Origin: Nitrospinaceae bacterium
GTDB taxonomy: Bacteria; Nitrospinota; Nitrospinia; Nitrospinales; JACRGP01
Length of the DNA stretch: 64,000 nucleotides
Assembly (NCBI GenBank): GCA_029261555.1
Contig: JAJDBB010000122.1
Span: forward strand, 1 to 64,000
Reading direction: 5' to 3'
Shown: piece after piece, positions 232 through 58,413 of the stretch
How positions within the stretch are numbered: the stretch's first letter is position 1
Layout of the letters: the number at the start of each line of letters is the position of its first letter
Notes under the pieces: model-generated
The model's input: the letters and a program-made list of their open reading frames with translations, nothing else
What the model was told of the DNA's origin: nothing
Database searches by the model: none
Position numbers and translations under genes: made by a program

Positions 232-393
232 GCCAGCGTGACGCTGGATCCAATAGATGCAACTAATACGGCAGGCGTTACGCGTGTGGGGGAGTCCGCA
301 ACTCAAAGACAATAACAAAAGCTCGGCAGGTAGGAGTTGGAGTGAAGTAAAACTTTTCAATCGCCAACCGTCGGGTCCAGCGGCGCGCTGGCC
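232..393. repeat. Dispersed palindrome-capped repeat, long form
   Basis: Left cap GCCAGCGTGACGCTGG, right cap CCAGCGGCGCGCTGGCC. Body aligns with 50471-50630 and 52045-52207 (..caatcgccaaccgtcgggtccagc). Confidence 0.75.
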
Positions 394-502
394 AGAAGAA
401 AAGGAAGCCGCTTAAAATCGTGTAGAATATATTGACCGGAGAGAGGCCAACGGTAAACCCAAATAGTTACTACCGCAATTTAACAGGTATGAGGATGAAA
501 TA

Positions 503-1207
503 ATGCGCACAGAATTTTTCAGTAAGGGAAGAATCGCCGGGACCGTGTGGTTGGTTTTGCTTGTTGTCGGGCTTCCGCATCAAAGCCGCGCCGTAGAAAT
601 AAGCGCTTATGGTCCCAACTTCTTTCAATTGGAGAAAGAGACTTATCTGTTCCATTACGATTGGACAATAGAGCAAGAGAAGAACTGGCTGAAGGGGGCC
701 ATGTGGTATCAATACAAAAAAACTCCTCCTTCCTACGCCAAATACAACCCCAAGAGATACTCTTACCTGCAGGACGCCGAAATAGTCGAGTTATTGGAAA
801 AGGCGACTTATACCACCAAACGGACGACGTTGACCGGCGCCTATGAGGAAGGGGGGCTCATGTATGTGCCTCTTCCGCACGATGGAATCCCGGAGCACAC
901 CTTGACCATGTACAGGGTGAAGGCGCTGACGGGAAAAGCCGCGGGCAAGGAAGGGTGGATTTATGAAACCCGCATTGGTTCTCGGGTGGATAAGCCGGAG
1001 AATCTGCCCGCCACGGAAGTTGACGAGGCAAAGGGTAAGTCACCGAACAAAAAGACCGCCCGTTATATGGTGAAGCTGAAGTCGGGCAAAAGAATCGTCA
1101 CCCGGTTTTATAAGGAAGCTGAAGGTACCGTGACTCTGAAGAAGGGCGGAAAAACTTTGAATTACCCGAAAAGCGAGATTGCCTCCGTCCAGAAACTGGG
1201 GAAGTGA
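503..1207 (+). CDS. Secreted hypothetical protein
   Basis: 234 aa ORF with N-terminal signal-peptide-like segment (GTVWLVLLVVGLPHQSRA). Confidence 0.65.
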   Translation: MRTEFFSKGRIAGTVWLVLLVVGLPHQSRAVEISAYGPNFFQLEKETYLFHYDWTIEQEKNWLKGAMWYQYKKTPPSYAKYNPKRYSYLQDAEIVELLEKATYTTKRTTLTGAYEEGGLMYVPLPHDGIPEHTLTMYRVKALTGKAAGKEGWIYETRIGSRVDKPENLPATEVDEAKGKSPNKKTARYMVKLKSGKRIVTRFYKEAEGTVTLKKGGKTLNYPKSEIASVQKLGK

Positions 1208-1236
1208 TTTTGAAAGCGTTCTAATCTAAAAAAATT

Positions 1237-1785
1237 TTGGAGGAATCCATAATGAAAATACGCACTTTGTTTTTTTCCTGCATGATTGTCATTTTTTTCG
1301 CGCAACCTCTTTGGGCCGACGCAGGCCATAAGAAGCCCTATATCGGTTCCGAGGCTTTTGAGCAGATGAAACAATTGATCGGCGAGTGGGAAGGTTCCAT
1401 GGACATGGGCAAGGGTCCCATGAAATTCAAGACGACTTACCGGCTGACCTCGGGGGGAAGCGCCATCGTGGAAACCGCGTTTGCGGGAATGCCGCATGAA
1501 ATGACGACGATCTATCACGACAATTCCAAACGCCAGTTGACGATGATCCATTATTGCGCGGAGCAAAACCAACCCAGAATGAATTTAATAAGCGCAGATA
1601 CCCGCCGCATTGCGATGGAGCTTTCGGCGGATTCGGATATCGACGTGGCGCATGAAAAACACATGCACGCGATCACTATCGAGTTTGAGGGAAAGGACCA
1701 AATGACTCAATACTTGACGCCCTTCGAAAATGGGCAAAAAAAGGACCTGGTGACGATTGCCTTAAAACGCCAACAAGCAATGTAG
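1237..1785 (+). CDS. DUF1579-like exported protein
   Basis: 182 aa; signal peptide; LIGEWEGSMDMGKGPMKFKTTYRLTSGGSAIVETAFAGMPHEMTTIYHDN pattern. Confidence 0.55.
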   Translation: MEESIMKIRTLFFSCMIVIFFAQPLWADAGHKKPYIGSEAFEQMKQLIGEWEGSMDMGKGPMKFKTTYRLTSGGSAIVETAFAGMPHEMTTIYHDNSKRQLTMIHYCAEQNQPRMNLISADTRRIAMELSADSDIDVAHEKHMHAITIEFEGKDQMTQYLTPFENGQKKDLVTIALKRQQAM

Positions 1786-2051
1786 GAAATATTCCTTTCG
1801 AAATAGTATTTTACGCTGAGGACGGTGAAAGGTTGAACCCTAAAAAAGCTTTGGTCGGTTTCCTCCACCTGTAAGGTGGTCTGCCTCTCCGGCGAGGAGT
1901 TATCCCGAAGCGTTGTTTCTTGACTTAAAAAAGAAAAGATCAGATCCGCGATTTGCCTAAAGGTATCCAAACGGGTAAATAGGAAGCGGTGGTTGTAGCT
2001 GATTGGAAAGTATTTCCCGGAAAACCTGAACCATCCAAGGAGCATATTGAA

Positions 2052-2414
2052 ATGATCAAATTTGTTATGTGTTTGCGCCGACGCTCTGATATGACTCGCG
2101 AGCAGTTTCAAGATTATTGGGTGAAAAAACACGGCCCTTTCTTTATGAAAAATGCCGCCGCTATGAGGGCCAAAAAATATGTGCAATCTATTACTTTAGA
2201 TACCCCTTTAAACGAAGGGCTAAGGAATTCGAGAGGCATGTTGCCAGAATATGACGGCTTGGCAGAGGTGTGGTTTGAATCAGAAGAAGATTTAATGGAG
2301 GCAATGAGTTCGCCGGAGGGGCAGAAGTTAAGCGCCGCGCTGCTGGAAGACGAGGGGAATTTTATCGATCACTCTAAATCTTCGGCATTCATTGTTAAGG
2401 AGCATGAGCTATAG
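2052..2414 (+). CDS. EthD domain-containing protein
   Basis: MIKFVMCLRRRSDMTREQFQDYWVKKHGPFF is the EthD signature; internal start chosen over ORF start 1989. Confidence 0.75.
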   Translation: MIKFVMCLRRRSDMTREQFQDYWVKKHGPFFMKNAAAMRAKKYVQSITLDTPLNEGLRNSRGMLPEYDGLAEVWFESEEDLMEAMSSPEGQKLSAALLEDEGNFIDHSKSSAFIVKEHEL

Positions 2415-2708
2415 GTAGCTGACTTTGTAGTGAATTTGAACAAAGTCATTTGGGAATGCAATTGCCTCTGATTTTTCCAGCCGTATGTCTTGGTTTATTT
2501 TACTAAACAGAGGCTTTCCTTCCCCTAGTAAAACGGGAACCTGCGTCAAGGTCATCTCATTGATAAGTTTAAGATTTAAAAATGCTTGAATAGTTTTACC
2601 ACCATCCACGTATGCATGTTTAAACCCTTCACCTTCTAATTGAGCAATCAATTCCAGCAAATCGCCTGAGTACATCGCTACTTTATCCTTTACAGGAGAA
2701 CTTAAAAC
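2409..2708 (-). pseudogene. Dihydrofolate reductase / RibD C-terminal family protein, 5'-truncated
   Basis: VLSSPVKDKVAMYSGDLLELIAQLEGEGFKHAYVDGGKTIQAFLNLKLINEMTLTQVPVLLGEGKPLF matches the C-terminal half of the family; homology stops at ~2708. Confidence 0.75.
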
Positions 2709-2819
2709 CTTCGAGCAGTTCAGCTATTGTTGAGGCACACTAAATTGGAAAGCGCTGTTGGCTATCTTGGTATCGAAGTAGACGATGCATTAGAGATGGC
2801 GGAACAGACAGAAGTTTGA
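2706..2819 (+). pseudogene. Tyrosine recombinase/integrase C-terminal remnant
   Basis: Codons 2706-2819 read NLRAVQLLLRHTKLESAVGYLGIEVDDALEMAEQTEV*, the integrase C-terminus (canonical LLGHTKLESTVRYLGIEVDDALE), with a stop codon just upstream. Confidence 0.8.
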
Positions 2820-3093
2820 TCAAAGCTAAGGATAGCGGCCTTTTTAAAAAAGGTCGTTATGCGGCAAAAACAGACATTATCAGAAATGATATTTATCGTA
2901 GACGGGTAAAAGTCCCAGGCTTTTGCATTTAAGTAATGTCCAACTTGCATAATCCATAATCTATTGGATTCTTTAAGGCTTCTTGGGCATTATCAAAGTA
3001 GCGAGGTTCTGCTTCATAGCAATCTGTAATAATCTCTTTTTTATAGTGCCAGAGTGGATAAGCGCCTTACCCACTGAATAGGAGCGAGAATTC

Positions 3094-4050
3094 ATGACTG
3101 ACCAACAGGCGCCAAGCGCTTGGCTAAATGTACCATCGACCTCTGGATTTCTTGCAGTCGGCAATTCTCACTCGATTTATTGGCGCTCTTTCGGCCATCC
3201 CGATGCGACGCCAGTTATTGCACTGCACGGTGGTCCTGGTTCCGGCTCAAATCCCCGACACTTAACGTTCTTCGACCCACAAATCCATCGGGTGATCATG
3301 TTCGATCAGCGCGGTACCGGGCAATCAACGCCGTCGGCCACTACGATTGAAAACACGTCGCAAGACTTACTAAATGATATCGAAAAACTGCGCCGCTACT
3401 TAAGCGTCGAGCGTTGGTTGGTCTTTGGTCTGTCCTGGGGAGCCTGTCTTGCATTGCTCTATAGTCAAAACCACCCACAGGTCAGTACTGGCTTGGTGCT
3501 GGCAGGGTTGTCAAATCGCCACGATCATCAGACCGCGTGGATACTTGAGGAACGTGCGCGGCTGTTGCCCGAACGTCACGAGGAGTTCCTGAAGGCGCTT
3601 GCTCCCGGCGACCGAGCTAATCCAATTGCAGCTTATTATCGAAAGAGTTTGTCTCCGGATCGAAAGAACCGGCTCGAGGCAACGTACGCCGTTTGGGCGC
3701 TGGAAGCCGACTTGGAAGGCCCGGAACCGCAAACGCTGCCGACGATGAGCCTCGATGAGATTGACGCGAGCATGGTCAACCGCGCGATGATTTACCTTCA
3801 CTACTGGGCGAACAAGACTTTTCTCCCACACGGTCATTTATTGATTAATCCGAGCGCGCTGATTGACCTGCCTGTGGTATTGGTTCACGGCGCTTCGGAC
3901 TGGATTTGCCCGCTAAGCGGCGCTCAGCGAGTGGTTGATTCGATCGAGGGTACTCAATTGATCGTTGTGCCGGGCGCAGGGCACTCGCCGTATAGCGCAG
4001 ACATGTTGCAAGCGCTGCGCGAATCTATAGTGGCCACAAGACAACAATAA
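3094..4050 (+). CDS. Alpha/beta hydrolase, proline iminopeptidase family
   Basis: HGGPGSGSNPRHLTFFDPQIHRVIMFDQRGTGQSTP and GLSWGACLAL motifs. Confidence 0.9.
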   Translation: MTDQQAPSAWLNVPSTSGFLAVGNSHSIYWRSFGHPDATPVIALHGGPGSGSNPRHLTFFDPQIHRVIMFDQRGTGQSTPSATTIENTSQDLLNDIEKLRRYLSVERWLVFGLSWGACLALLYSQNHPQVSTGLVLAGLSNRHDHQTAWILEERARLLPERHEEFLKALAPGDRANPIAAYYRKSLSPDRKNRLEATYAVWALEADLEGPEPQTLPTMSLDEIDASMVNRAMIYLHYWANKTFLPHGHLLINPSALIDLPVVLVHGASDWICPLSGAQRVVDSIEGTQLIVVPGAGHSPYSADMLQALRESIVATRQQ

Positions 4051-4320
4051 ACGCTCGATTAACGACTACCAATTCGTCGATGCGTTGACGCCTGACCTGC
4101 CCCCCTATAAATAAGTCCATGGTAAAACTCTTTTTCACATGAAGTGTCCGTGAGCTCTGTTGATGCCACAACGTCCGCTTTGGGTCGAGAGTGGACTTAA
4201 AATCAACGTAATCGAACGTCCGTTTTCCATACCAATTGTTACCGCACATTCAACGGTAAAATTAACAGACAACAGTTGAGCAATATTAAAAACATTATAT
4301 GAAGGAAGTGGAACCTTGGA

Positions 4321-4536
4321 ATGAAGAAAACGATAGGCTATACATTGCTTGTTTTATCATTCATTTTTTGGGTTGTCATTTTTCTGCTCCCTTTTTTGGA
4401 ATTATCAAAAGGGCAAATAGCCTTAGCGACCACATTTCTAATAATTGCAGGCGAGGCGGCATTCTTTGCATCCATTGCTTTATTGGGTAAAGAAGCTTGG
4501 GGACATATAAAAGCAATATTTAAACTAAAGAAATGA
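4321..4536 (+). CDS. Small two-TM protein, transporter-suffix-domain-like
   Basis: 71 aa, MKKTIGYTLLVLSFIFWVVIFLLPFLELSKGQ..IIAGEAAFFASIALLGKEAW; family recognised by eye. Confidence 0.6.
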   Translation: MKKTIGYTLLVLSFIFWVVIFLLPFLELSKGQIALATTFLIIAGEAAFFASIALLGKEAWGHIKAIFKLKK

Positions 4537-4576
4537 TTCAATAAAGTATCCGGATTGGGTCGTTTTTTTAGTCGAA

Positions 4577-5602
4577 TTACTTTTTACTTTGCGGCGATTG
4601 TGTGAGTACGATTTTGCCGATGCTTGAACCCGCTTCCAGTTGTTTGTGGGCCGTCATAATATTCTCTATGGATACTTCTCCAAAAGTTTCATTGAGCGTC
4701 GTTTTTATTTCGCCTGAATCGACAAGGTCGGCAATCGAATTAAGTAAATCATGTTGCTTGCCTCTATCGGCGGTTTTATACATGGATCGCGTGAACATGA
4801 ACTCCCAGACAAAACCGGCGCTTTTGGATTTCAATTCATCCAGATCGTGACTTTGCGTTGTTTCCACGATACTGCAAATCATTCCCTGCGGCGCGATCAA
4901 CTCCGACATGGTTTTGAAATGATCGTCGGTGTTGTTTAGACAAAAAATGTAATCCGGTTTGGCAAGAGACTTCTGTTTAAATTGCTCGTTCATATTCTCG
5001 TGGTGATTGACAACGACGTCCGCTCCCAGCGACAGGCACCACTGGCGACTCTCTTCACGCGAGGCGGTAGCGATCACCCGCAGGTTGGCAATTTTCTTTG
5101 CCAGCTGGATCGCAATCGAACCCACGCCGCCAGCGCCGCCAATAATAAGAATTTGTTTGTCCTTATCCACAGCGGGATTTATTTTCAGGCGATCAAAAAG
5201 CGCTTCCCAGGCGGTGATACTGGTCAGAGGTAAAGCCGCGGCCTCTGAAAAGTCTAAGGATTTGGGCATACGACCTGCAATATGTTCGTCTACCAATTGA
5301 TGCGAAGCATTGCTGCCGCCTCGAGTGATATCCCCTGCGTAAAAAACGCGGTCTCCCGTTTTAAATCGGCTGACTTTTTCGCCTACGGATTCGACAACGC
5401 CGGCGGCGTCCCAACCAAGAATCCGCGGCGGATTCTGTGCGTCCTCGATTTTTTGACGAACCTTGTAGTCAACCGGATTAACAGATACAGCCTCAATTTT
5501 TACCAGCAAATCGTGGTCTTTGGGTTCGGGCGTTTGTTGTTCGAACTCGACAAAAGAACCCGTTTTTGTATCTGTATTAAATTGATAGCCAATCGCTTTC
5601 AT
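4577..5602 (-). CDS. Zinc-type alcohol dehydrogenase-like / quinone oxidoreductase family protein
   Basis: GWDAAGVVESVGEKVSRFKTGDRVFYAG and IIGGAGGVGSIAIQLAK motifs (MDR superfamily). Confidence 0.9.
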   Translation of the reverse strand: MKAIGYQFNTDTKTGSFVEFEQQTPEPKDHDLLVKIEAVSVNPVDYKVRQKIEDAQNPPRILGWDAAGVVESVGEKVSRFKTGDRVFYAGDITRGGSNASHQLVDEHIAGRMPKSLDFSEAAALPLTSITAWEALFDRLKINPAVDKDKQILIIGGAGGVGSIAIQLAKKIANLRVIATASREESRQWCLSLGADVVVNHHENMNEQFKQKSLAKPDYIFCLNNTDDHFKTMSELIAPQGMICSIVETTQSHDLDELKSKSAGFVWEFMFTRSMYKTADRGKQHDLLNSIADLVDSGEIKTTLNETFGEVSIENIMTAHKQLEAGSSIGKIVLTQSPQSKK

Positions 5603-5706
5603 TTCTTTACCAACTCCTCATGAAATGGGTAATCCGTGTAACCTTCTGACCCGCCTCCGCCAAGTAACGTGCGAGTATTGATAGTTTCATTCAAAGGAAA
5701 AATATC
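5599..5706 (-). pseudogene. NADH:flavin oxidoreductase / old yellow enzyme C-terminal remnant
   Basis: Minus strand reads DIFPLNETINTRTLLGGGGSEGYTDYPFHEELVKK*; the GGGxEGYTDYP tail is characteristic. Its stop overlaps the ADH start (ATGA). Confidence 0.7.
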
Positions 5707-5759
5707 TTAAACCCGTTTGGGATAGTGCGGAATAGCCCGAAAACAATTTTCGTTGTCAA

Positions 5760-5835
5760 GCCTGCGGCCTGGCCGGCGAAGGCGCCGGGGCCGCCAGGCG
5801 TAACTTGCACGGAAAAGCTATACGGCGAATGTCTC
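5760..5835. repeat. Degenerate dispersed palindromic repeat
   Basis: GGCCTGGCCGGCGAAGGCGCCGGGGCCGCCAGGCGTAACTTGCACGGAAAAGCTATACGG: caps plus a body fragment shared with 52045 (gtaaggaaaagctacagg). Confidence 0.45.
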
Positions 5836-6959: not shown

Positions 6960-7201
6960 TTCCTGTTACCCGTTAATTCTAAACAGCGCTCTCAGTGCGG
7001 GGACATATAGAATTCGGGTTTTGCCCGGCCCTCAGCTCCACCGCTCCGCGTGGGGCGAGTTTGGTTGCGGCGGGTAATATTTTCTGGAATGGGTTCGAAA
7101 ATTCAATCGAAGAAGGGATTAATCCCTCATGCCCTTTCCACCCTTCAACGAGGGATTTTAACGAAGCGGGTAAATCCTTAAGCTCTAATAAAAAATGGCG
7201 A

Positions 7202-8330: not shown

Positions 8331-8349
8331 CGCCCTCCGCGGAGGAGCC
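8331..8349. repeat. Class II palindrome (CGCCCTCCGCGGAGGAGCC)
   Basis: Near-identical to 63774-63795 (tattcgccctctgcggaggag). Confidence 0.6.
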
Positions 8350-8622
8350 AGGAAAGCGTCTGGAGGCAATGCTTGATACGCAATCGCTCCAAGCATGTAG
8401 CGTTCTCCGTATAAGCCGCGCCAATTTCCTTCCACCCGGGGGGTGGTGGCGCTCATAGACGGAGAATGTTCAAACCGCCTCTTAGTATCCAAAAAAGAAC
8501 TGGATATCGCCGAGGAGCATCTGCCCCTCTGGCGAAGAGTGGTGCAATTAACGGAGCGTGTTCGAACCAAACCAATGGAACGTTGCCCGTCGTCAGCAAT
8601 TTCCATCCACCCGGGTGGGTGG

Positions 8623-9748: not shown

Positions 9749-9765
9749 AATTTTTTAGCGGAAGC

Positions 9766-9870
9766 CGGGCAACGCCCGGTGGAAGAGTTTGAGTTGCAAG
9801 CCCTCCCAAGCGCGTAGCGCTTCCCGAATAAGTCACACTATCTGCCTCCGGGGCTTCCCCGTGAGTCGAC
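9766..9870 (-). repeat. Dispersed palindrome-capped repeat, short form, inverted
   Basis: Reverse complement begins CGGGGAAGCCCCGGAGGCAGATAGTGTGAC and ends CTTGCAACTCAAACTCTTCCACCGGGCGTTGCCCGGC; aligns with 54117-54215. Confidence 0.75.
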
Positions 9871-11834: not shown

Positions 11835-12038
11835 AGGCGAGCCTGCCTCCTTAAACATCCCGGTTTTATAAATACTAACTCTACAACCGGTACAGACTCC
11901 AGGGAGAAGGTCAAGATTGGAACCTGGATTATAAAAAACTCGCCACTCGCCGTGGGGGCAGGGTAGGGGTTGCAAGCACACCATATATTGTCATTGTTCT
12001 GTGAACGTCACAGAGAATGCCTCTAGGCGCTTGCCTGG

Positions 12039-12741: not shown

Positions 12742-13002
12742 CCAGGCAAGCGCCTGGAGGCAATTAGTGTAACGTTTAAAAACGCTACGGGCTTTGGTGA
12801 GTTTAGCGTCTCGAATGCAATAACGAAAGTTCGAGAGGTTGGACGTCAGATCGAAAAGAAACTTTCCAATCGCCAACTAATGAGCCCAGCGTCACGCTGG
12901 CCGCCGGGCAAGCGCCCGGGGGGAAAGTTTGAGACGCCAGCTCACCAAAGCTCGTAGCGTTATCCAAATACGTCACACTAGTTGCCCCTGCGGCGAGCAG
13001 CG
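12742..13002. repeat. Two palindrome-capped repeats in inverted arrangement
   Basis: CCAGGCAAGCGCCTGG (12742-12757), body, CCAGCGTCACGCTGG (12886-12900), CCGGGCAAGCGCCCGG (12904-12919), inverted short body to ~13002. Confidence 0.8.
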
Positions 13003-21935: not shown

Positions 21936-22101
21936 CCAGGCAGGCGCCTGGAGGCAACCGGGGTAGCCCCCGGAGGCAGTTAAAAAAATAGCAACCACTG
22001 ATGAACACAGAAATAAAGTTGGCAGCGGTCGGTTGTCAGTTTAAGGAAAATTATTCAATCGTAAACTATCGCCCCCACGGCGAGTGGCCAGGCGCTTGCT
22101 T
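21936..22101. repeat. Dispersed palindromic repeat composite between MCP and cheB
   Basis: CCAGGCAGGCGCCTGG (21936-21951) 2 nt after the stop; ends CCCACGGCGAGTGGCCAGGCGCTTGCTTGG near the cheB start. Confidence 0.75.
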
Positions 22102-29355: not shown

Positions 29356-29630
29356 CCAGGCATGCGCCTGGGGGCATATGGTGTGACCTATTTGGGTAAC
29401 GCTAAGGGCTGGTGAACTTGGCGCCTCAATCCCTGCCTCACGGCGAGCGGCAGGCATGCGTCTGCCGGCGAGGCGCCGGAGCCAATGGGGCGCAACTTAT
29501 TTGTGTGACGTTAGTAGCTTCGGCGCGCTTGAATCTCGAATGTAATAGGGAGCGTTCGAAAGGTTCGCGTTTTATAGCTGAGAGAAAGTTTTCAAACGGT
29601 AACTACTGAGTCCAGCGTCACGTTGGCCGC
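29356..29630. repeat. Dispersed palindromic repeat, composite
   Basis: CCAGGCATGCGCCTGG (29356-29371) directly after TAA; internal caps 29440-29484; right cap CCAGCGTCACGTTGG (29612-29626). Confidence 0.8.
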
Positions 29631-34338: not shown

Positions 34339-36993
34339 ATGGCAAACCCAACACCCGCGCCGGTCTCCCCGTTTTTCCTCAGTTTGCTCTGCCCTTTTCT
34401 CTTTCTTTGTTCCCCCGTTTTTGCAAACGGCTCTGTTGATTCCCCGGCGCCAGAACTAAAAACTTCGATCAACAATTCCTACGGCAAGCTGCCGATTCGC
34501 TTCGAGGCCAACATGGGTCAGACGGACGCGCGGGTAAAATTCCTGGCGCGAGGTAAGGGCTACTCCCTGTTCCTGACGCCGCAATCTGCGGTGATGGTTC
34601 TTCCAATAGGTCCGACAAAGACGGAGTCCAATTCCATAAAGAAAATTTCTCTGGAAAACAACGAACTTCGGAGCGCCGCGATCCGGATGAGCCTGCTGAA
34701 CGCCAACCCTTCGCCGGAAATGCTGGGCGAGGACCAACTGGTCACGAAGAGCGCTTACTTCATCGGCGCCGACCCGGCGAAGTGGCGGAAGGACGTCGCT
34801 AACTACGGGAGCGTGCGTTACAAGGAGTCTTATCCGGGGATCGACCTGATCTATTACGGCAACCTGCGCCAACTGGAATACGATTTTGTCGTCTCGCCCG
34901 GCGCCAACCCGGACGTCATTAAAATAAAATTTTCCGGACAGGACAAGGTAGAGATTGACGACGCGGGCAATTTGATTCTGCAAGCGGGTTTGGGTCGCGT
35001 TGTGCAAAGCGCTCCCGTCGTTTACCAAACCATCGGAGGCGAACGAATTTCCATTGATGGCCGTTACGTTTTACTGGGCGAGGACTCTGTTGGATTCCAT
35101 ATCGGCCAGTACGACCGCGAAAAAGTTTTGGTGATCGATCCTTTGATCGAGTTGTCCACTTTTGCCGGCGGGTCGGCCAACGATTTTGGCAACGGAGTCG
35201 CTCTGGACGCTTCCGGAAAAATTTATATCACCGGCATCGCCCTGTCCGCAGACTTTCCGACTTTGGGCGGTGTCGACAGCGCATTGGACGGAACCAGCGA
35301 CGCCTTTGTGGTCAAGTTGAACGCTACAGGTTCGGCGGCGATTTATTCAACCTATCTGGGGGGATCGGGAACCGACGACGGTAACGCCATCGCGGTCGAC
35401 TCGTCGGGCGCCGCTTACGTTATTGGCAGTACGGCGTCGACAGATTTCCCGACCGTGGGACCCATCGACGCAACGTTAAGCGGAACTCAGGACGGTTTTG
35501 TCGCCAAACTTAACGCCTCAGGTTCGACTCTGATTTATTCCACCTACCTGGGAGGGTCCGGCACGGACTTTGGAAATACCATCGCCGTGGACGCCTTTGG
35601 CGAGGCGTACGCCGCCGGCAGGACCGAGTCGACTGATTTTCCCACCGCCGGAGTGATCGACGCGACTTTGGGCGGAGTCCAGGACGCCTACGTCTCGCGA
35701 TTGAACGCCGCGGGTTCCGCGTTGTCCTATTCGACTTATCTCGGCGGCTCGGCCAATGATTTTGCCAACGGGATTGCGGTGGACGTCTCGCGCAACGCTT
35801 ACGTTACGGGCAATACTTTTTCGACGGATTTCCCGACGGCCAGTCCCTTTCAAGCGGCGGCGGGCGGCGGGGACAGCGACGGGTTCATTGCCAAAATAAA
35901 CGCAACCGGCACGGCGTTGACTTATTCAACCTATATCGGCGGGAACGACGTCGACGACGGCAACGCCATCGCCGTGGACGCGTCGGGGAATGTCTATGTG
36001 ACCGGGGGAACGCTGTCCGCTGATTTTCCCGTTGCGGGACCCATCGACGCCGTCGTGAGCGACAAAGACGTCTTCGTCCTCAAGTTAAACGCTTCTGGCT
36101 CGGCGCTGACGTATTCCACCTATCTGGGCGGCTCGGGCCTGGACGTCGGCAACGCCATTGCGGTCGATTCCTCGGGCGCCGCTTACGTTACGGGCAACAC
36201 TTTTTCGACGGATTTCCCGGTCGCCAGCGCCGTTCAAACAACTGCGGGCGGGGGAGACAGCGACGCCTTCGTCGCCAAACTGAATGTCGCAGGCTCGGCG
36301 CTGACCTACTCCACGTATCTGGGAGGCGCGGGGGTCGATAACGGCAACGGCATAGCGGTGGACGCCTCGGGAAACGCCCACGTTGTCGGAGATACCGCCT
36401 CATCCGACTTTCCGTTAACGGGAATCGTTCTGGATACCACGCTGGGCGGGAGCCAGGACGCTTATATCGTAAAAATAGTCGAAAGCCCCGTTGTTCCGCC
36501 GTTCAACCCAAAGACCGGAGTCGTCTCGCCTTACTGGCAATCCGAGGCGGGCATTTACACGTTCATAGCGGTCAACCATCCGTTCCTTTCCGGCATGAAC
36601 TCGCAAATCGGCGTGGCGATGACGGCGGTGAACGGAGACGGCGGATTGCGAGGAACTCTGGAATTTACGGTTCTGGCCAACGAAACCCAACGGGTTTTTA
36701 TTACGCCGTTCAACTTCAGCTTCAACTCGCAGACGAACGGAAGCGATCGGTTTTTGATCGCGGGAAATTCGCCGCAATCGGGGCGGCTCCAGTTTTCTCC
36801 CGTTGCCAGCAATCCGGAATCTTTTGCGGGAATCGCGAATTCATTTGGCAAGGGGTTTCCAGACGTCACCGCCTTGAGCTTTTGGGGCGCCATCGTGGTG
36901 TTGAACACTGCGACTGGTTTCGCCATGGAGTTCATCGGCGATATGCAAGAGAGCCGCGCGTTCAGCTCCGCTAACTTCTCGGGAGTGAATTGA
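34339..36993 (+). CDS. Secreted SBBP-repeat beta-propeller protein with shared C-terminal module
   Basis: Signal peptide; PIRFEANMGQTDARVKFLARGKGYSLFLT; seven SBBP-type repeats; C-terminus identical in design to the 59040-62537 protein. Confidence 0.9.
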   Translation: MANPTPAPVSPFFLSLLCPFLFLCSPVFANGSVDSPAPELKTSINNSYGKLPIRFEANMGQTDARVKFLARGKGYSLFLTPQSAVMVLPIGPTKTESNSIKKISLENNELRSAAIRMSLLNANPSPEMLGEDQLVTKSAYFIGADPAKWRKDVANYGSVRYKESYPGIDLIYYGNLRQLEYDFVVSPGANPDVIKIKFSGQDKVEIDDAGNLILQAGLGRVVQSAPVVYQTIGGERISIDGRYVLLGEDSVGFHIGQYDREKVLVIDPLIELSTFAGGSANDFGNGVALDASGKIYITGIALSADFPTLGGVDSALDGTSDAFVVKLNATGSAAIYSTYLGGSGTDDGNAIAVDSSGAAYVIGSTASTDFPTVGPIDATLSGTQDGFVAKLNASGSTLIYSTYLGGSGTDFGNTIAVDAFGEAYAAGRTESTDFPTAGVIDATLGGVQDAYVSRLNAAGSALSYSTYLGGSANDFANGIAVDVSRNAYVTGNTFSTDFPTASPFQAAAGGGDSDGFIAKINATGTALTYSTYIGGNDVDDGNAIAVDASGNVYVTGGTLSADFPVAGPIDAVVSDKDVFVLKLNASGSALTYSTYLGGSGLDVGNAIAVDSSGAAYVTGNTFSTDFPVASAVQTTAGGGDSDAFVAKLNVAGSALTYSTYLGGAGVDNGNGIAVDASGNAHVVGDTASSDFPLTGIVLDTTLGGSQDAYIVKIVESPVVPPFNPKTGVVSPYWQSEAGIYTFIAVNHPFLSGMNSQIGVAMTAVNGDGGLRGTLEFTVLANETQRVFITPFNFSFNSQTNGSDRFLIAGNSPQSGRLQFSPVASNPESFAGIANSFGKGFPDVTALSFWGAIVVLNTATGFAMEFIGDMQESRAFSSANFSGVN
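35161..36480 (+). repeat. Seven in-gene SBBP repeats
   Basis: Recurring GNAIAVDxSGxAYVTGxTxSTDFP and SALTYSTYLGGSGxDxGN. Confidence 0.85.
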
Positions 36994-37129: not shown

Positions 37130-37241
37130 CACTGCGACTGGCCGGCCGGGCAACGCCCGGTGGAAAAGTTGGAGTTGCAAGTTTACCGATACTTGAACCG
37201 TTTCCCTCAAACGTCACGTTATCTGCCACCGGCGGCTCGCC
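37130..37241 (-). repeat. Dispersed palindrome-capped repeat, short form, inverted, overlapping wbqC 3' end
   Basis: Reverse complement CCCGGCGAGCCGCCGGTGGCAGATAACGTGACGTTTGAGGGAAACGGTTCAAGTATCGGTAAACTTGCAACTCCAACTTTTCCACCGGGCGTTGCCCGG. Confidence 0.8.
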
Positions 37242-37921
37242 GGGCCGCAGTTGAACAACAGGTCGACGACGGAAAGGTGCGAAATGAACGGGTCGCCGCG
37301 TTGTTTGTAGACGGGATGGTCGTAGTCCTGATACTCCAGGCGGATCGAGCGGTCGGCAAATTTTTTCTCGTCGATATAATTCTTTCCCGCCAGGCCTTCA
37401 TAGAACGCGTTGGCCTTCAACTCTTCGCAGGCGAATACAATCCGGTCTGTGGCGTCGCCTTCGGGATGCGCGGCACTAAATTTCCGCTCCAGTTCAATCT
37501 CGGATGAAACCACGGTCGGGGTGTCGATTCCCAAAATGGCGCACAATTCCCGCGTCAGGGCGATGTTGAGTTCGGACAGGCGGGTCCAGGGTTTGCGGTA
37601 GAAAGGTTCCAGCCGTTCCTGGTATTCCTTGAAGTAGGGCGCGCCTCCGTAATGGTGGACCAGCGAGCGCCAGTGCTTGGCCTGCCAGTTGCTGTGAGGA
37701 TCGATCTCGACTTCGTGGATGGCCTTGCCGTACAGGTTCTGGGAGACGACGGGAACGATCAGCCAGGCCCAGCGGTCTTTGATTTTTATTTTGTTGCGGT
37801 TTCGCCAGGAATATTTTTCGTACTGCAACTCGTCGAAAAAAATAAACAGATCAGCGCGATGGATCTGCTCAAAATAGCCCAGCCAGGGCAGATAGCTGGG
37901 TTGTACTCCTGCCAATATCAT
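37214..37921 (-). CDS. WbqC family protein
   Basis: MILAGVQPSYLPWLGYFEQIHRADLFIFFDELQYEKYSWRNRNKIK. Confidence 0.93.
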   Translation of the reverse strand: MILAGVQPSYLPWLGYFEQIHRADLFIFFDELQYEKYSWRNRNKIKIKDRWAWLIVPVVSQNLYGKAIHEVEIDPHSNWQAKHWRSLVHHYGGAPYFKEYQERLEPFYRKPWTRLSELNIALTRELCAILGIDTPTVVSSEIELERKFSAAHPEGDATDRIVFACEELKANAFYEGLAGKNYIDEKKFADRSIRLEYQDYDHPVYKQRGDPFISHLSVVDLLFNCGPASRRWQIT

Positions 37922-49116: not shown

Positions 49117-49899
49117 TCAAAGGATAATGCTAAGGCAGGTGACGCCTGCGTCGGCTTTTTCAAACTCCCCGATATCGACAGCGTCGACGTTGAAACCGCA
49201 ACGCCGAATTTCCTCCGCCAAGCGCGGATAACCCTCGGGAAAAATCACCCGGTCGCCCAGCGTTAAACAATTCGCGCTTTCATCCGGCGCCGCTTCAATC
49301 CATTCAAATTTTCCAAACGGTTCGACGTCGACCTTGTCCGGCGCGATCAGCAAAATGCCCCGGCCCAGGTAAGACACGGAGCTTTTCAAATGCAGTCCGC
49401 CCTTCACGGCGACCGGGCGGAAAGGTCCGGCATAATTTTTTTCGAGGAAGGTCAAGGCCGCAGGGTTGGTGCGCGAGGATTGCCCGACGTACAGCGCGCC
49501 GTCGATATTCAAGACGTCGCCGCCGTCGACGAACGCCGGAGGCGGGATGGGTTCAACCTTGCGATAACGCCGGAGCGCCGTTGAAACGGATTCCGCCTCC
49601 CCGCGCCGACTATCCGCCCCCATGGAGCACAGCCACGCCCGGTCGCCCGCAACGATAGCGGTATCCTCCACAAACGGGCCGTCGGGAAAGTCTTCCATCG
49701 GGTCCAGCGAAACGATATCCAAACCGGCGCGCCGCAAGGCCGCGACATAGCCCCTATGCTGGGCGAGCGCCTTGGAGCCATCGATGGAATTTTTTTCCGG
49801 ATGGGTCGAAAGAGCTTTGGAAAAGGATTTGCCCGGTTCCCGGACAATGGCCAGCGTGACGCTGGACTCAGTAAGCGCGACTTTTGATGGAGAGCGCAT
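49117..49899 (-). CDS. Dimethylarginine dimethylaminohydrolase family protein
   Basis: LAIVREPGKSF; FPDGPFVEDTAIV; FVDGGDVL; GGLHLKSSVSYLG; ANCLTLGDRVIFPEGYP; C-terminal Cys in AGVTCLS. Confidence 0.9.
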   Translation of the reverse strand: MRSPSKVALTESSVTLAIVREPGKSFSKALSTHPEKNSIDGSKALAQHRGYVAALRRAGLDIVSLDPMEDFPDGPFVEDTAIVAGDRAWLCSMGADSRRGEAESVSTALRRYRKVEPIPPPAFVDGGDVLNIDGALYVGQSSRTNPAALTFLEKNYAGPFRPVAVKGGLHLKSSVSYLGRGILLIAPDKVDVEPFGKFEWIEAAPDESANCLTLGDRVIFPEGYPRLAEEIRRCGFNVDAVDIGEFEKADAGVTCLSIIL

Positions 49900-50036
49900 A
49901 GGCTTTGGTGCGTTTGAATATTGAATAGCGCCTTTGCCGGCCCACTGGCAATGTTAACGGTAGGGAGAAATCGATAGCGTCGTTATCGATTCAGAAGAGA
50001 TCGTCCATCCGCCACTATTGCCTCCACGGCGAGTGG
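49851..50036. repeat. Dispersed palindrome-capped repeat overlapping the DDAH 5' end
   Basis: CCAGCGTGACGCTGGACTCAGTAAGCGCGACTTTTGATGGAGAGCGCATAGGCTTTGGTGCGTTTGAATATTG aligns with 50471 onward; right cap CCACGGCGAGTGG (50024-50036). Confidence 0.7.
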
Positions 50037-50470: not shown

Positions 50471-50630
50471 CCAGCGTGACGCTGGACCCAATAGGTGTGG
50501 ATTGTATGGAGAAGCTACACGCTGTGGTGAGCTTGCAATTCAAATACAATATGGAAAGTTCGACAAGTTGGCGTTTTCGAGTTGGGAATAATTTCTCAGT
50601 GTCAACTATCGGCTCCGGCGCCTCGCCGGC
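50471..50630. repeat. Dispersed palindrome-capped repeat, long form
   Basis: CCAGCGTGACGCTGG ... CCGGCGCCTCGCCGG; body as in 232-393. Confidence 0.8.
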
Positions 50631-52044: not shown

Positions 52045-52302
52045 CCAGGCAAGCGCCTGGAGGCAATAGGTGGGGCTTGTAAGGAAAAGCTACAGGTTGT
52101 GGTGAGCTTGCAACCCGAACCCGAACACAAAACGAAAGTTCGGCAGGCTAGAGTTCGAATCAAGAGAATTTATCAATCGCCAACCGTTACCACCGGCGGT
52201 ACGCCGGCGCCGGGAGGCAATTCGTGTAACGTTTAAGGGAAACGGTTCAAGGTTCGGTGAGCTTGCGTCTCGAACCCTGCCCCCACGGCGAGTGGCAGGC
52301 AA
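52045..52302. repeat. Two dispersed palindrome-capped repeats in tandem
   Basis: CCAGGCAAGCGCCTGG (52045-52060) directly after TAA; CCGGCGGTACGCCGG (52193-52207); second short body; CCCACGGCGAGTGGCAGGC. Confidence 0.85.
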
Positions 52303-52322
52303 ATCCCTCACATATCAATATA

Positions 52323-52649: not shown

Positions 52650-52651
52650 AA

Positions 52652-53278: not shown

Positions 53279-53282
53279 ATGA

Positions 53283-53566: not shown

Positions 53567-53647
53567 GGGTAGCCCCCGGGAGCAGAGGTTGTAGTTTGGA
53601 TAATTTTTCTTAAACGGCCAACTGTCAACCGACCGCCGTTGACTATT

Positions 53648-53851
53648 CTATCCCTCGATGCGCGCGAATGCCAGTTCCTTGGCGGCTTTGGTGACGTCTT
53701 CGACAAACTTTTTGAAGGCCATGTCGCCGTCCTTGTGCTGGGTCTGTTTGATCAGCTTTTCCTCGTCGGTGTCGATCGCCAGATCTAGAACGTTGACCCC
53801 CGGCGTAACGTGATGCTTCCTGATTTCCACCCGAATTTCTTTGATGTCCAT
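53648..53851 (-). CDS. Small hypothetical protein
   Basis: MDIKEIRVEIRKHHVTPGVNVLDLAIDTDEEKLIKQTQHKDGDMAFKKFVEDV. Confidence 0.55.
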   Translation of the reverse strand: MDIKEIRVEIRKHHVTPGVNVLDLAIDTDEEKLIKQTQHKDGDMAFKKFVEDVTKAAKELAFARIEG

Positions 53852-53936
53852 TGCGCGCCTCCAAACAACTAGAATTAAATTTTTGCGAGCCAAATAAATA
53901 GCATTTCAACGCCCCAGAATCAAGATCATTTTACCA

Positions 53937-54216
53937 GCGAGGCGCCAAAGCCCGGTCAAAATTGTCAGGCTGAGTCCTTCGACAAGCTCGGGGTTACATA
54001 TTTATGCCTAACATTTGAAAGGGATTGTGTTTGGCAGTAGAGAATAAACGAAAGTATGGTTAGCGGCTTAAAGAGGGGAGTTCAATCGCCAGCTATCGGG
54101 TCCAGCGTCACGCTGGCCAGGCAAGCGCCTGGAGGCAGATAGTGGAACGTTTAAGGGAAACGGTTTAAGTATTGGTGAACTCGCAACTCCAACTCTCCCA
54201 CCGGGCGTTGCCCGGC
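53937..54216. repeat. Composite of dispersed palindromic repeats downstream of flagellin
   Basis: Caps CCAGCGTCACGCTGG, CCAGGCAAGCGCCTGG, CCGGGCGTTGCCCGG (54201-54215); inverted copy of GACTCAGCCTGACAATT inside. Confidence 0.8.
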
Positions 54217-54221
54217 GCCGG

Positions 54222-55073
54222 TTAGCCCTGGGTATCTAGCAGGCGGCCTACAAGGGATTCGCTTTGCAGGCTTTGTTGAAGAGCGCCGAGTCCGACGCGC
54301 GTTTGCAGGAGGGAGCTTCTCAGATTGGAAATGGTTTCCGCGATATCGGTTCCAGCGATTTCATTTTCCGAGCGCGAGAAATTTTCGATGGAAACTTCCA
54401 GGTTGGCCGACGTCGAACTCAAACGATTCGCCGTAGCTCCCAACTCGCCGCGCGCGGCAGTCACCTGGCTCTGCGCCTGCTCCAACGGCGCCAGCGCGTT
54501 CAACGCCCCCTGCGCGGTGGAAATGTCGAGGGAATCGATTCCCAACGCCTGAGAGCTGGTATCTTCCACCACGTTCAGGTTGATCTGGTTTTCCGGTCCC
54601 GTCCCGGTCCCCACTTGAATATTGACCTGATTGGCCGAGTTGGCTCCCAGGTTCCCGTCCAGCAGACTCTGGCCGTTAAACTCCGCCGAGCCGGAGATAC
54701 GGTCGATCTCGTCGCTGATGGAGGTGAATTCGTTGTTGAGGGTCTGGCGTTGGGCGTCGCTCAGGGTTCCGTTGCTCGCCTGAATGGCCAACTCGCGACC
54801 GCGCGCGACCAAGTCGGAAACCGTGGACAAACCCGCGTCTGCGGTGTTCAGGAAATTGGCGCCTGCCGAGGTGTTCTCCGCCGCCTGCGACAAGGCCGCG
54901 ATCTCCGAGCGCAACTGGCTGGCCAGGGAGTTACCCGCAGGGTCGATCCCCGCGCTCGTCAGACGGTTGCCGGAACCGATTTGCGACAAGCTGGTGTTGG
55001 AATTAGAACGGCTGTTTTCCACGGAACGCAAAATCGTCTGGTTGATCGCGCTCAATCCTATTTCCTGGGCCAT
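54222..55073 (-). CDS. Flagellin
   Basis: N-terminal GLSAINQTILRSVENSRSNSNTSLSQIGSGNRLTSAGIDPAG..; C-terminal ENFSRSENEIAGTDIAETISNLRSSLLQTRVGLGALQQSLQS. Confidence 0.9.
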   Translation of the reverse strand: MAQEIGLSAINQTILRSVENSRSNSNTSLSQIGSGNRLTSAGIDPAGNSLASQLRSEIAALSQAAENTSAGANFLNTADAGLSTVSDLVARGRELAIQASNGTLSDAQRQTLNNEFTSISDEIDRISGSAEFNGQSLLDGNLGANSANQVNIQVGTGTGPENQINLNVVEDTSSQALGIDSLDISTAQGALNALAPLEQAQSQVTAARGELGATANRLSSTSANLEVSIENFSRSENEIAGTDIAETISNLRSSLLQTRVGLGALQQSLQSESLVGRLLDTQG

Positions 55074-55306
55074 GACAGTCCCTCGGTGATGGGGGTTTTA
55101 AGGCGCCGAAATTTCGCTAGCTTGAATAAATAAAGTAACGCCAAACTCAGAATTTGTCAATTTGCCGGTAAATGATGGGTTTAATATACTGAAAAGGGCT
55201 TGATGGAAAATATTGCTAATTCTATATTTTTATATAGAATTACAAATGATATCTATTTCAAAGCTGTTGTTTTTTTCCAAGAGGCTATGAAAGAAGGGGG
55301 CAAAAA

Positions 55307-58177
55307 ATGGGCAAACAATACCGTGTAGCGGGAGCAGTGGTAAGTCTGGACGGCGGAGAACCGGTTTCTGAAGTTAAAGTAAGAGCCTATGATAAGGATT
55401 TCTTTCGCGACCAACCTTTAGGGGAGGCGATTACCGATAACGTGGGACGCTATGAAATCCAATTTTCCAGGGACGACTTCACCGGACCATTAATCAGGCT
55501 GGAGCGCTATCCCGATATTTTCCTCCAAATCATTGACGACAAGGGCAAAATAATTTACTCCACCGAAAACTCGGTCGTGGTGAATGCGGGGCGCGATACG
55601 AGAATTGACGTCGCCATACCTCTGATTCAAAAATCTAAAGAACTTGGGATGGTTTTTGTTGGCGGCGAGCCTGTAAATTTAAGCTATGCCGCAAAACTGA
55701 CCGCTCAGGATTTAGTCGAAGCCTATCGTTACTGGCGACGGCGAAAAACAAAGTTAACCAGGCCTGATCTGGTAAAACTCGCTTTTCCAGGGTTGCATTT
55801 AAAAAGGGACCCCGATGACGATTGCGGCGAGGGGTATGGCGAAGTCTTTCGCCAATTCCTGGAGGAGCGCGGTTCCTTAAAAATGTTATTGGATACAGAC
55901 GCCGACGATTTACCCGTCGGCGCCGACGTCCTTTGGTTTTTTACCGACAATATTTCCGTAAAATATACCATCGACGCGGGCTTTCCCGACGACGCCGTTG
56001 ATCCAACCGTGCCGGCCGCCGATACGGCTTATGCGTTGACTGATGGAACGGCGCTGGGAACCTTGCGCGCCAACCTTGCAGACCTCCACGCCGATAACAC
56101 AACCCTTGCTCCAATTTACATTCAAAAAGTCGGGTTATTGGCTGAATACGCCTTGACGTCGTTTCTTAACGCTCCTTTCTCGCTGAGAGACGCCAGAAAT
56201 GGAGCGACGCGCATGGAATACAGAATCCTGGAACAGCCTCCAAACATTGCCGGCAGGACCAGCCCTTCCCGGACCTATGTCGAGGTTGGACCCGCAAACT
56301 CGGATACACAAAACTCCTTTACGGTTCCTCACGAACTCTTCCACCAGTTTCAATATCGTTACAACGACGTCGGCACGCGTTCCGGTATTTACGGGATTGT
56401 GCGAGAGGGCGGGGCGCGGTTTGGAACTGAAAGTATTAACGATCAACCCAACCGCTATATAGATACCGGCAAAAAGATTTTGAATGAACCGGAGCAGTCC
56501 CTTGTAAGCCCCGTCGGGGTGAAAAACCCCATCCGCTACGCGGCGGGTTTGCTTTGGAAGTACATAGCGGAACAGCATAGTGCGATTGTGGCCGAACCGC
56601 TGGTGGGAGTTGATTCCTATAGAAAGGTACTGGAAGCGACGGCTACCGTGGAAGCAGGAGACCCGGGGGTAGGATACGCGGCCACTGCCTTGCGCGAGGC
56701 GCGAAAACAAATGCCCTGGTATGGGAGTTGGGATCAATTTTCATACTACGACGCCGCCAATACCGAACTGGGTTCGCACGAAACGACTTGGGGAAATTAT
56801 TTGGCGGCGAACTACATCCATTCCACCGCCAACCCTGCGGCAGACGCGCGTTTTGATTATCTGGAAGACGAAGATCCGGTGCCGATTGCCGCCGCCACAA
56901 CAAAACTCGCCGACTATCAGGCCAAAGTGGAAGTTAATAATGATATCTCCATAGGCCAGGGAGGAAGCGTTTCAAGAACCCAGAACAATCATAAAGCCTG
57001 GGCCGCACGTTATTATCGCGTTACCCCGGACGCCGGTTCCCCGCCTCGCATGTTAAGGATTAATTTCTCCACTGCGGGAGGGATGACGGATCCACTGGTC
57101 CAAATACTCAGGTTCGACGCCGGTAACGCTCTGATGGATATAAGTCGTTCCGATCAGGCAACCTATTCCAAGACAATCAACATGAACGGCGTCGGCAATG
57201 TCGTGGCGATTGTTGGAAGCAGGGAAAATAGTGGAGACTACACGATCGACTTTGAGGAAATTGCCAGCGAGACGGACGTTCACGTAACGCGATGGAATTC
57301 ATCGGTCGGCACGGAGTATCAAATTGATCCCAAAGGTTGGTCCTGGACCTGGGCGTCTCCCGACGTAATGGTGGATAACGACGACGACGGTTTAGCGGAC
57401 TCGGAAGTGTTTTTTGATCAAAACAACAACCTGAAAGTCAGATTGCGCAATCGCGGGAACGCGCCGGCAAACAATATTGGAATTGAGTTTTTTTATCAAA
57501 ACGCAACGCCTTCTCTTTCTGCAGCGGCATGGATACCGGTTGAAAACAGCGCCGGCGTTGTTCAAACCATAACCGGCGAAACGCTGGACGCGTCTGGCGG
57601 AGCGGATGATGAGAAATGGTTTGGGGTGGATTGGGCGCCCGCTAACGACGGCTCCGGCAGTAAACACTGGTGCGTTAAGGTTGTGATTACAGTTCCCGGC
57701 GATCCTAATAATGATAATAAAATGGTATTGAATAATTTTGGAAACGTGATCGTCGCCCCCGACGCCGATTCAAATGAGTTTAAAATATTAGCGCGATACC
57801 CCCGCTTTGTCTGGGAGTTTGAAACATTTGTCGTCCCTCGCGGACCCAAGTGGACTATCGATTTCCCCGACGATCTTAAAATTGATTTGGTGAAAGACCA
57901 TAGCGCTAAAAAAGATAAATCGAGCTTTTGTAAATCGCGTTTGGTCGCTCCTTTTCCTGATAGAGCCGCTTTGCCCAGCGTTAAGCCGTCGGTGATGAAA
58001 AAAGCAAAACAATTTGACGGCAAGTCGGGGTTGCTCAAACCAAGACCTAATGAATTTTATCCAACCCCTAAAAAAGCTCTTCCGCCAGGCGTCGATCCAG
58101 AATCCCTGGTTACCGTAGCCTACAAGGTCAACGGTGAAATCATCGGAGGAGTCAGTTATCGGTTGGTGGAAAAATAA
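55307..58177 (+). CDS. Large protein with transthyretin-like N-terminus, HExxH motif and CARDB-like region
   Basis: GAVVSLDGGEPVSEVKVRAYDKD; VPHELFHQFQYRYND; NNLKVRLRNRGNAPANNIGIEFFY. Confidence 0.7.
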   Translation: MGKQYRVAGAVVSLDGGEPVSEVKVRAYDKDFFRDQPLGEAITDNVGRYEIQFSRDDFTGPLIRLERYPDIFLQIIDDKGKIIYSTENSVVVNAGRDTRIDVAIPLIQKSKELGMVFVGGEPVNLSYAAKLTAQDLVEAYRYWRRRKTKLTRPDLVKLAFPGLHLKRDPDDDCGEGYGEVFRQFLEERGSLKMLLDTDADDLPVGADVLWFFTDNISVKYTIDAGFPDDAVDPTVPAADTAYALTDGTALGTLRANLADLHADNTTLAPIYIQKVGLLAEYALTSFLNAPFSLRDARNGATRMEYRILEQPPNIAGRTSPSRTYVEVGPANSDTQNSFTVPHELFHQFQYRYNDVGTRSGIYGIVREGGARFGTESINDQPNRYIDTGKKILNEPEQSLVSPVGVKNPIRYAAGLLWKYIAEQHSAIVAEPLVGVDSYRKVLEATATVEAGDPGVGYAATALREARKQMPWYGSWDQFSYYDAANTELGSHETTWGNYLAANYIHSTANPAADARFDYLEDEDPVPIAAATTKLADYQAKVEVNNDISIGQGGSVSRTQNNHKAWAARYYRVTPDAGSPPRMLRINFSTAGGMTDPLVQILRFDAGNALMDISRSDQATYSKTINMNGVGNVVAIVGSRENSGDYTIDFEEIASETDVHVTRWNSSVGTEYQIDPKGWSWTWASPDVMVDNDDDGLADSEVFFDQNNNLKVRLRNRGNAPANNIGIEFFYQNATPSLSAAAWIPVENSAGVVQTITGETLDASGGADDEKWFGVDWAPANDGSGSKHWCVKVVITVPGDPNNDNKMVLNNFGNVIVAPDADSNEFKILARYPRFVWEFETFVVPRGPKWTIDFPDDLKIDLVKDHSAKKDKSSFCKSRLVAPFPDRAALPSVKPSVMKKAKQFDGKSGLLKPRPNEFYPTPKKALPPGVDPESLVTVAYKVNGEIIGGVSYRLVEK

Positions 58178-58304
58178 ATAAGGATAAATCAAGATGTTTG
58201 CGAATTACTATTTATAACGGGAGGGGTTTCATATTCATCAAATATTATTGCAAACCGCGCTTCGTGTTTATAGAATAGCCGGATTGCTGGCGGCAGGGGC
58301 AGTA

Positions 58305-58413
58305 GGCGCTGGCGAAGCGCCGAGGCAAGTAAGAAAACTGTTACGGCAAATGCTGGAGCTACATTGGGTTTGCAAATCAAAAACATTGCCGCCACGGCGA
58401 GTGGTGGCGAGGC
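58305..58413. repeat. Dispersed palindrome-capped repeat, short form
   Basis: GGCGCTGGCGAAGCGCC .. TGCTGGAGCTACATTGGGTTTGCAAATC .. CCGCCACGGCGAGTGGTGG. Confidence 0.65.

What the first reader, a model, noticed from the sequence alone, without database searches (positions are those of the whole stretch)
232..58413. Dispersed repeat family with interchangeable stem-loop caps on a conserved body
At least ten intergenic sites carry the same body (roughly aggca-gatagtgtaacgtttaaggaaa-gctac-ggtgagcttgcaactc..aacgaaagttcggcaggttggagtt..ttcaatcgccaactatcgggt). The caps differ in sequence but not in design: CCAGGC-AAGC-GCCTGG, CCAGCGT-G-ACGCTGG, CCGGGC-AAC-GCCCGG, CCAC-GGCGA-GTGG, CCGGCGCCTCGCCGG. Long (~160 bp), short (~100 bp), tandem and inverted forms occur (232, 9766, 12742, 21936, 29356, 37130, 49851, 50471, 52045, 53937, 58305). 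Stem identity changes while pairing is kept, which suggests selection for structure or modular cap exchange. I know of no named family with this behaviour.
Basis: partly seen in the sequence, partly recalled or inferred. Interest (0 to 1): 0.8.

Follow-up and report, generated by a model that had tools for sequence, protein, structure and literature searches.

The report
Hairpin-ended repeats that swap ends
This marine nitrite-oxidiser relative (Nitrospinaceae) carries hundreds of tiny DNA repeats whose two hairpin ends come in a few fixed types that are swapped between copies independently of the middle; they resemble the known REP/REPIN repeats but lack their signature tag and transposase, so how they move is open.

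Summary
The window lies in a Nitrospinaceae MAG. In 1.05 Mb of it I find 461 hairpin "caps" of about 8 discrete types (near 0 in Markov controls) and 118 inward-facing pairs, mostly enclosing 68- or 129-nt bodies. Each cap type carries its own inner foot (AGGCA, ACCCA, TGGAA...). Selecting on loop and foot alone recovers perfect stems of several sequences; one stem pair is replaced compensatorily between sister genera. Bodies are only loosely conserved (62% identity) and have no conserved fold. Left-cap type is independent of body relatedness (shared 12-21% at 75-85% body identity, 16-17% below 65%), so caps exchange faster than bodies diverge. Comparison with a congeneric MAG shows complete two-cap units present or absent beside resident caps, and two related bodies with different caps. 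Cap B plus foot occurs across the order and in 32 viral contigs (altered controls 0). No Y1/RAYT transposase was detected in this genome, its congener or several cap-rich relatives; no GTAG or CGTC tag. Best reading: REPIN/BIME-like non-autonomous mobile elements with interchangeable ends, mobilised by an unidentified enzyme. New variant of a known kind; mechanism inferred.

The parts
232..392 (+). Long element: cap B (233-247), foot ATCC, 129-nt body, cap B variant (377-391)
8347..8447 (-). Decayed short element next to tRNA-Leu; caps eroded
9764..9861 (-). Short element: right cap C (CCGGGCAACGCCCGG on + strand), left cap D-like
11943..12038 (-).
12742..12900 (+). Long element, cap A left and cap B right; the alignable body at this locus in the congener has caps D and E
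12904..13000 (-). Inverted short element, caps CCGGGCAAGCGCCCGG and H, next to cap B of the preceding element; absent at this place in the congener
21936..22087 (+). Caps A and D in series, a different (third) body, cap F at the right end
29356..29626 (+). Short-type copy with A-like cap (29356-about 29450) followed by long element with caps E and B (29465-29626)
37146..37243 (-). Short element, left cap E, right cap C; preceded by degenerate cap copies
49851..50036 (+). Caps B and F around a 158-nt body of a different type
50471..50629 (+). Long element, caps B and E
52045..52207 (+). Long element with caps A and G, starting directly after a stop codon (TAA|CCAGG)
52207..52296 (+). Short element in tandem with the preceding one, right cap F
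53985..54115 (+). Decayed right half of a long element ending in cap B (54101-54115)
54117..54215 (+). Short element, caps A and C, directly beside cap B; absent in the congener, where the same cap B is followed by the flank
58305..58404 (+). Degenerate short-like element, right cap F

Best explanation
These are non-autonomous mobile elements built like REPINs: two short hairpin modules (cap plus foot, about 20-25 nt) face each other around a 68- or 129-nt spacer. Shown: the modules are discrete, oriented and far better conserved than the spacer; they keep pairing through stem changes while loop and foot stay fixed; complete two-cap units differ in presence between congeners and sit directly beside resident caps; cap type is shuffled against body relatedness. 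Inferred: an enzyme supplied in trans, not of the detectable Y1/RAYT type, recognises the folded hairpin by loop and foot, probably on single-stranded DNA, and moves the unit next to other hairpins or to gene ends; because any two modules can serve as ends, and recombination or template switching occurs at the feet, ends are swapped between copies.
For: Discrete oriented cap-and-foot modules: 461 caps in 1.05 Mb. Neighbouring caps 20-250 nt apart are inward-facing in 116 of 148 pairs; 74 pairs abut within 6 nt. Choosing by loop and foot only, the NAGC|NGGCA class has 83 perfect 6-bp stems of 8 sequences against 15 with one broken pair; TCGCC|RGGCA has 53 perfect stems of 6 sequences. Sister genus: 51 of 54 matches have stem CCGGGC/GCCCGG, none has CCAGGC/GCCTGG. 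Body: 62% identity, no consensus fold, mean z -0.2 to -0.9. Left-cap sharing 0.12-0.21 at 75-85% body identity versus 0.16-0.17 below 65%. Presence/absence of whole units: L251:8966 versus L214 (unit abutting cap B in the congener) and window 54117-54215 versus L168; 15 of 38 cap-bearing syntenic intervals have caps in one genome only (sampling favoured congener loci with caps). Gene-end bias: 26 of 118 elements lie within 10 nt of an ORF stop; caps enriched between convergent and depleted between divergent genes.
Against: No mobilising enzyme identified. No clear target duplication: at the cleanest site the junction is 0 bp or an ambiguous CTGG. The alignable-body cap swap rests on one good locus and one mosaic locus. 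Insertion and precise deletion are not polarised with two genomes. Right caps are not random: short bodies favour C and F, long bodies favour B.
Confidence: 0.55

Rival explanations
1. No dedicated enzyme is involved: the hairpins stall replication and the nascent strand switches template to another hairpin (microhomology at CA-GATAG), copying caps and whole units between loci. Quasi-palindrome repair keeps stems perfect.
For: Caps are homogenised and swapped independently of bodies; tandem duplications and abutting caps are common; no Y1 transposase found; bodies at about 62% identity are too divergent for ordinary homologous exchange.
Against: Does not readily explain units ending exactly at the outer edge of both caps, the one-to-one link of foot to cap, or the same loop and foot on different stems.
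Confidence: 0.2
2. Relic RAYT/REPIN family: a Y1 transposase spread the elements in an ancestor and was then lost.
For: Architecture matches REPINs (PMC3116915); Y1 proteins occur in 31 of the 80 surveyed genomes.
Against: Cap-bearing genomes of 94-95% completeness (G013, G015, G016, G017, G024) lack a detectable Y1 and cap-free ones (G003, G006, G008) have it; no exact cap lies within the 12 fetched Y1 loci; turnover between congeners looks recent; no GTAG tag.
Confidence: 0.12
3. Caps are kept for a host role, such as mRNA 3'-end protection, transcription attenuation or binding of a nucleoid protein; the bodies are passengers.
For: Gene-end and convergent bias; order-wide identity of cap B; in viral contigs 6 of 30 sit exactly at an ORF stop, versus 0.3% of random positions in this genome.
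Against: Rapid presence/absence turnover between congeners; no T-run next to the caps for an intrinsic terminator; no Rfam match at gathering threshold.
Confidence: 0.1
4. Cap swapping is an artefact of short-read metagenome assembly joining contigs through repeats.
For: Both genomes are fragmented MAGs.
Against: Caps are 13-16 nt, probably shorter than assembly k-mers (assembler settings unknown); swaps occur inside contigs flanked by conserved genes; cap B also occurs in single-contig G010 and ten-contig G022.
Confidence: 0.03

Closest known systems
REPIN / REP doublets (PMC3116915)
   Same: Inverted pairs of short palindromes, conserved ends around a less conserved spacer, high copy, extragenic, tandem clusters, insertion near other copies, complementary stem changes
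   Different: No RAYT/Y1 gene detected; no GTAG; spacer has no conserved hairpin; about 8 end types combine almost freely
GTAG- and CGTC-tagged REP superfamilies, including dRS3 (PMC3733652)
   Same: Short tagged palindromes with alternative complementary stems; CGTC REPs also lack a dedicated transposase
   Different: Tags here are GCCT, GGGT, TCCA, GGCY or GCCC rather than GTAG or CGTC; 4-6-bp GC stems
BIMEs (PMC2817692)
   Same: Mosaic of oppositely oriented palindromes, with hybrids holding two REP types
   Different: Two recurrent dispersed spacer families (68 and 129 nt); no RAYT found
Neisserial intergenic mosaic elements (dRS3 with RS units; recalled, not compared by sequence)
   Same: Units separated by short palindromes, mosaic exchange
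   Different: Different palindrome; not tested further
Mobile GC clusters of yeast mitochondrial DNA (PMC4478555, abstract only)
   Same: Short GC-rich palindromes in families that move and nest (partly from my own knowledge)
   Different: Organelle; no recurrent paired-end spacer reported in what I read

Membership tests
REP (GTAG/CGTC superfamilies) | 20-40 bp palindrome, high copy, mainly extragenic | tested here: met
   461 caps in 1.05 Mb; 315 of 461 outside called ORFs in about 15% non-coding DNA
REP (GTAG/CGTC superfamilies) | Unpaired GTAG or CGTC tag next to the palindrome | tested here: not met
   Feet are AGGC, ACYC, TGGA, RGCC, GGGC; outer side variable
REPIN | Inverted doublet at fixed spacing | tested here: met
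   116 of 148 pairs inward; bodies cluster at 66-70 and 127-133 nt
REPIN | Spacer able to form a hairpin with compensatory changes | tested here: not met
   RNAalifold consensus energy 0; body z -0.2 (short), -0.9 (long)
REPIN / IS200-IS605 | Cognate Y1 (RAYT) transposase in the genome | tested here: not met
   PF01797: no match in this genome or its congener, both about 86% complete, nor in cap-bearing G013, G015, G016, G017, G024
REPIN | Unit moves as a whole | tested here: inconclusive
   Whole-unit presence/absence at orthologous places; direction of change not polarised
MITE of a DDE transposon | Continuous terminal inverted repeats and target-site duplication | tested here: inconclusive
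   End-to-end identity inside the feet is weak (2.7 and 3.7 of 8); no clear duplication at clean sites
BIME | Mosaic of oppositely oriented REPs with hybrid dimers | tested here: met
   43 left/right cap combinations among 118 elements; but the REPs lack the tag
Known structured RNA | Match to an Rfam family | tested here: not met
   Only tRNA-Leu at gathering threshold
Protein-coding palindromic element (as in Rickettsia) | Conserved open frame under selection | tested here: inconclusive
   One frame is open: 11 stops versus 18 +- 4 in simulated divergence; no codon-position periodicity

The most novel reading that the evidence does not exclude
An order-wide REP-like system in Nitrospinota in which hairpin-and-foot modules are the replicating units and bodies are interchangeable cargo, moved by an enzyme that is not a Y1 transposase and reads loop and foot; one module (CCAGCGTGACGCTGGACYCA) is also carried by many uncultivated viruses.
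Probability: 0.3. Interest if true: 0.75.

Novelty: new variant of a known kind. Interest (0 to 1): 0.5.

Why it matters
REP repeats are attributed to RAYT transposases; a dense, fast-turning REP-like family without a detectable RAYT, with ends that shuffle measurably against their bodies, is a natural test of what moves and maintains such repeats (an open question already for CGTC REPs). The fixed loop and foot on changing stems gives concrete bait for finding the enzyme.

Tried and rejected
Protein-coding repeat: the short body translates openly in one frame, but divergence adds stops nearly as expected and there is no codon-position signal, so mostly ancestral chance. Structured RNA body: no consensus fold, no Rfam match. 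RAYT mobilisation: tested in this genome and 79 relatives, no link with cap number, no exact cap near 12 Y1 loci. Locus-level compensatory drift: rejected in favour of lineage-level stem variants. Elements spanned intact by a BLAST alignment to the congener: none in the sequence compared (the aligner breaks at divergent intergenic stretches, so this is weak). Hit in the distant genome G064: its flanks resemble G004, probably a misbinned contig. Cap B in isolate phages and plasmids: only partial, mostly intragenic matches of chance level. Phylum searches of G077 and G079: too few genomes to tell. The exact cap strings were found in no held paper.
Full report
What the window is. It is contig C122 of a 3.05 Mb, 129-contig MAG (86% complete). 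The only other genome of its genus in the survey (G001) corresponds by contig number and length to JAJDBD01, Nitrospinaceae bacterium OFTM44. Coding sequences of the two are about 80-94%, mostly 85-90%, identical where aligned, with local synteny.

Check of the observation. Every listed coordinate carries caps. In 1.05 Mb of own sequence, exact caps occur 46 (A, CCAGGC-AAGC-GCCTGG), 49 (B, CCAGCG-TGA-CGCTGG), 28 (C, CCGGGC-AAC-GCCCGG), 20 (D, CCGGGG-TAGC-CCCCGG), 18 (E, CCGGCG-AGG-CGCCGG), 34 (F, CCAC-TCGCC-GTGG) and 20 (H, CTGC-TCGCC-GCAG) times; a Markov control gives 0 for all but one of these (1 for E). Loops are asymmetric, so caps have a direction, and each type has its own foot on the inner side: A and D AGGCA, B ACCCA or ACTCA, C TGGAA, E AGCCA or GGCCA, F and H GGGCA. 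The contigs were partly chosen because they held hits, so densities are biased upwards. Genome-wide counts without that bias: 106 A/D-class caps and 53 B caps with foot.

Anatomy. Of 148 neighbouring cap pairs 20-250 nt apart, 116 face inwards; 74 cap pairs abut within 6 nt. Bodies between facing caps (feet included) cluster at 66-70 and 127-133 nt. The long body is the left part of the short body followed by a different right part. Mean pairwise identity is 62-63%. RNAalifold finds no consensus structure and single-copy z-scores are near zero for the short bodies and -0.9 for the long ones: structure is in the caps, not in the body. An open frame across the short body looked suggestive but failed the controls.

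Pairing with changing stems. Selecting sites only by loop and foot, without asking for pairing, gives 83 perfect 6-bp stems (eight sequences, led by CCAGGC 41, CCGGGG 26, CCGGGC 11) against 15 with one broken pair for NAGC|NGGCA, and 53 perfect 4-bp stems (CCAC 29, CTGC 18 and four others) for TCGCC|RGGCA. Other classes have essentially one stem each. In the sister genus (G002, G004) 51 of 54 NAGC|NGGCA caps have CCGGGC/GCCCGG and none has CCAGGC/GCCTGG. Within a type, apart from the CCGGGC sub-lineage, changes mostly break pairing or give G-T. So stems change as lineages and are then copied; pairing is not repaired copy by copy.

Cap exchange. Body pairs at 75-85% identity share their left cap 0.21, 0.12 and 0.14 of the time (within this genome, within the congener, between them) against 0.16-0.17 below 65% identity; right caps show a weak rise (0.37-0.42 against 0.21-0.25) that follows body type. 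Only tandem neighbours share caps, and not always: one 94%-identical tandem pair has left caps B and A. At the locus of window 12742 the alignable bodies (about 85-86% identical) carry caps A and B here and D and E in the congener; a second locus (L006 versus L102) is a mosaic with both caps different.

Movement. At L251:8966 versus L214 the congener has [C ... A] inserted directly beside cap B, with flanks CACGCTGG and T(T/C)AGCCGG otherwise continuous. At window 54117-54215 this genome has an A...C unit directly beside cap B where the congener passes from cap B to the flank. A further unit, 12904-13000, lies beside cap B and is absent in the congener. In the congener L135 (own counterpart L337) shows a copy starting right after a stop codon. 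Of 38 syntenic intervals with caps, 15 have them in one genome only, a biased sample because congener loci were fetched for having caps. No target duplication can be claimed. With two genomes, gain and loss are not polarised.

Where they sit. 26 of 118 elements start within 10 nt of an ORF stop; caps are enriched between convergent genes (26% against 18% of gap length) and depleted between divergent ones (18% against 27%) (simple ORF calls, clustered copies).

Spread. Cap B with foot occurs in 43 of 80 surveyed genomes, up to 221 copies in one, 0 for the reversed control. Beside it the bodies differ between lineages, and solitary caps occur. A/D caps are concentrated in the window's family. 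Unexpectedly, CCAGCGTGACGCTGGACYCA is in 32 IMG/VR contigs (30 distinct flanks), while a loop-altered control, a stem-swapped control and caps A, C and D each give 0; 6 of 30 lie exactly at the end of an ORF, against 0.3% of random positions in this genome. Hosts are unknown.

Mobiliser. PF01797 has no match in this genome or its congener and shows no link with cap number among relatives. Absence in 86%-complete MAGs alone is weak, but five cap-bearing genomes of 94-95% completeness also lack it.

Reading. The closest known things are REP doublets/REPINs and BIMEs (PMC3116915, PMC2817692, PMC3733652). It works like them; it is not filed as a member because two defining features, the tag and the Y1 transposase, were tested and not met. 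The enzyme and the single-stranded mechanism are inference. Template switching at hairpins is the main rival.

Noticed in passing
L354-L385 (IMG/VR contigs): Exact cap B plus foot in 32 viral contigs from many metagenomes, in 30 distinct flanks, foot extending to ACCCAAT, 6 exactly at an ORF stop; altered controls and other caps give none.
   Followed up: partly
L122, L146, L149 (Clostridia MAG RGIG5399): The 22-mer GCCAGGCAAGCGCCTGGAGGCA occurs five times in the fetched stretches of a sheep-gut Clostridia MAG, beside other palindromes followed by similar GGCAAA-like feet.
   Followed up: no
window 232-5826: About 5.6 kb absent at this place in the congener, flanked by a diverged direct repeat (GTCTCTATxGTCAyC...GCGCCTCCTG) and by elements.
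   Followed up: partly
L125 7498-7767 and L168 about 215-520 (congener): Another insertion family with ends GGGTCAGGACTCATTAATTATGT / ACATAATTAATGAGTCCTGACCC, present in the congener and absent here.
   Followed up: no
window 35299-36414: Six tandem repeats of about 192 nt, 67-78% identical, inside the 884-aa ORF at 34339-36993.
   Followed up: no
window 55307-58177: 956-aa ORF with no Pfam match, absent between the syntenic genes of the congener.
   Followed up: no
L239, L248, L252, L254, L138: Further dispersed repeats between caps, e.g. CCCCCTTGCAAAGGGGGTTGGGGGGATTCTTCC and GTCATTGCGAGGAGCG, used as alternative bodies.
   Followed up: no
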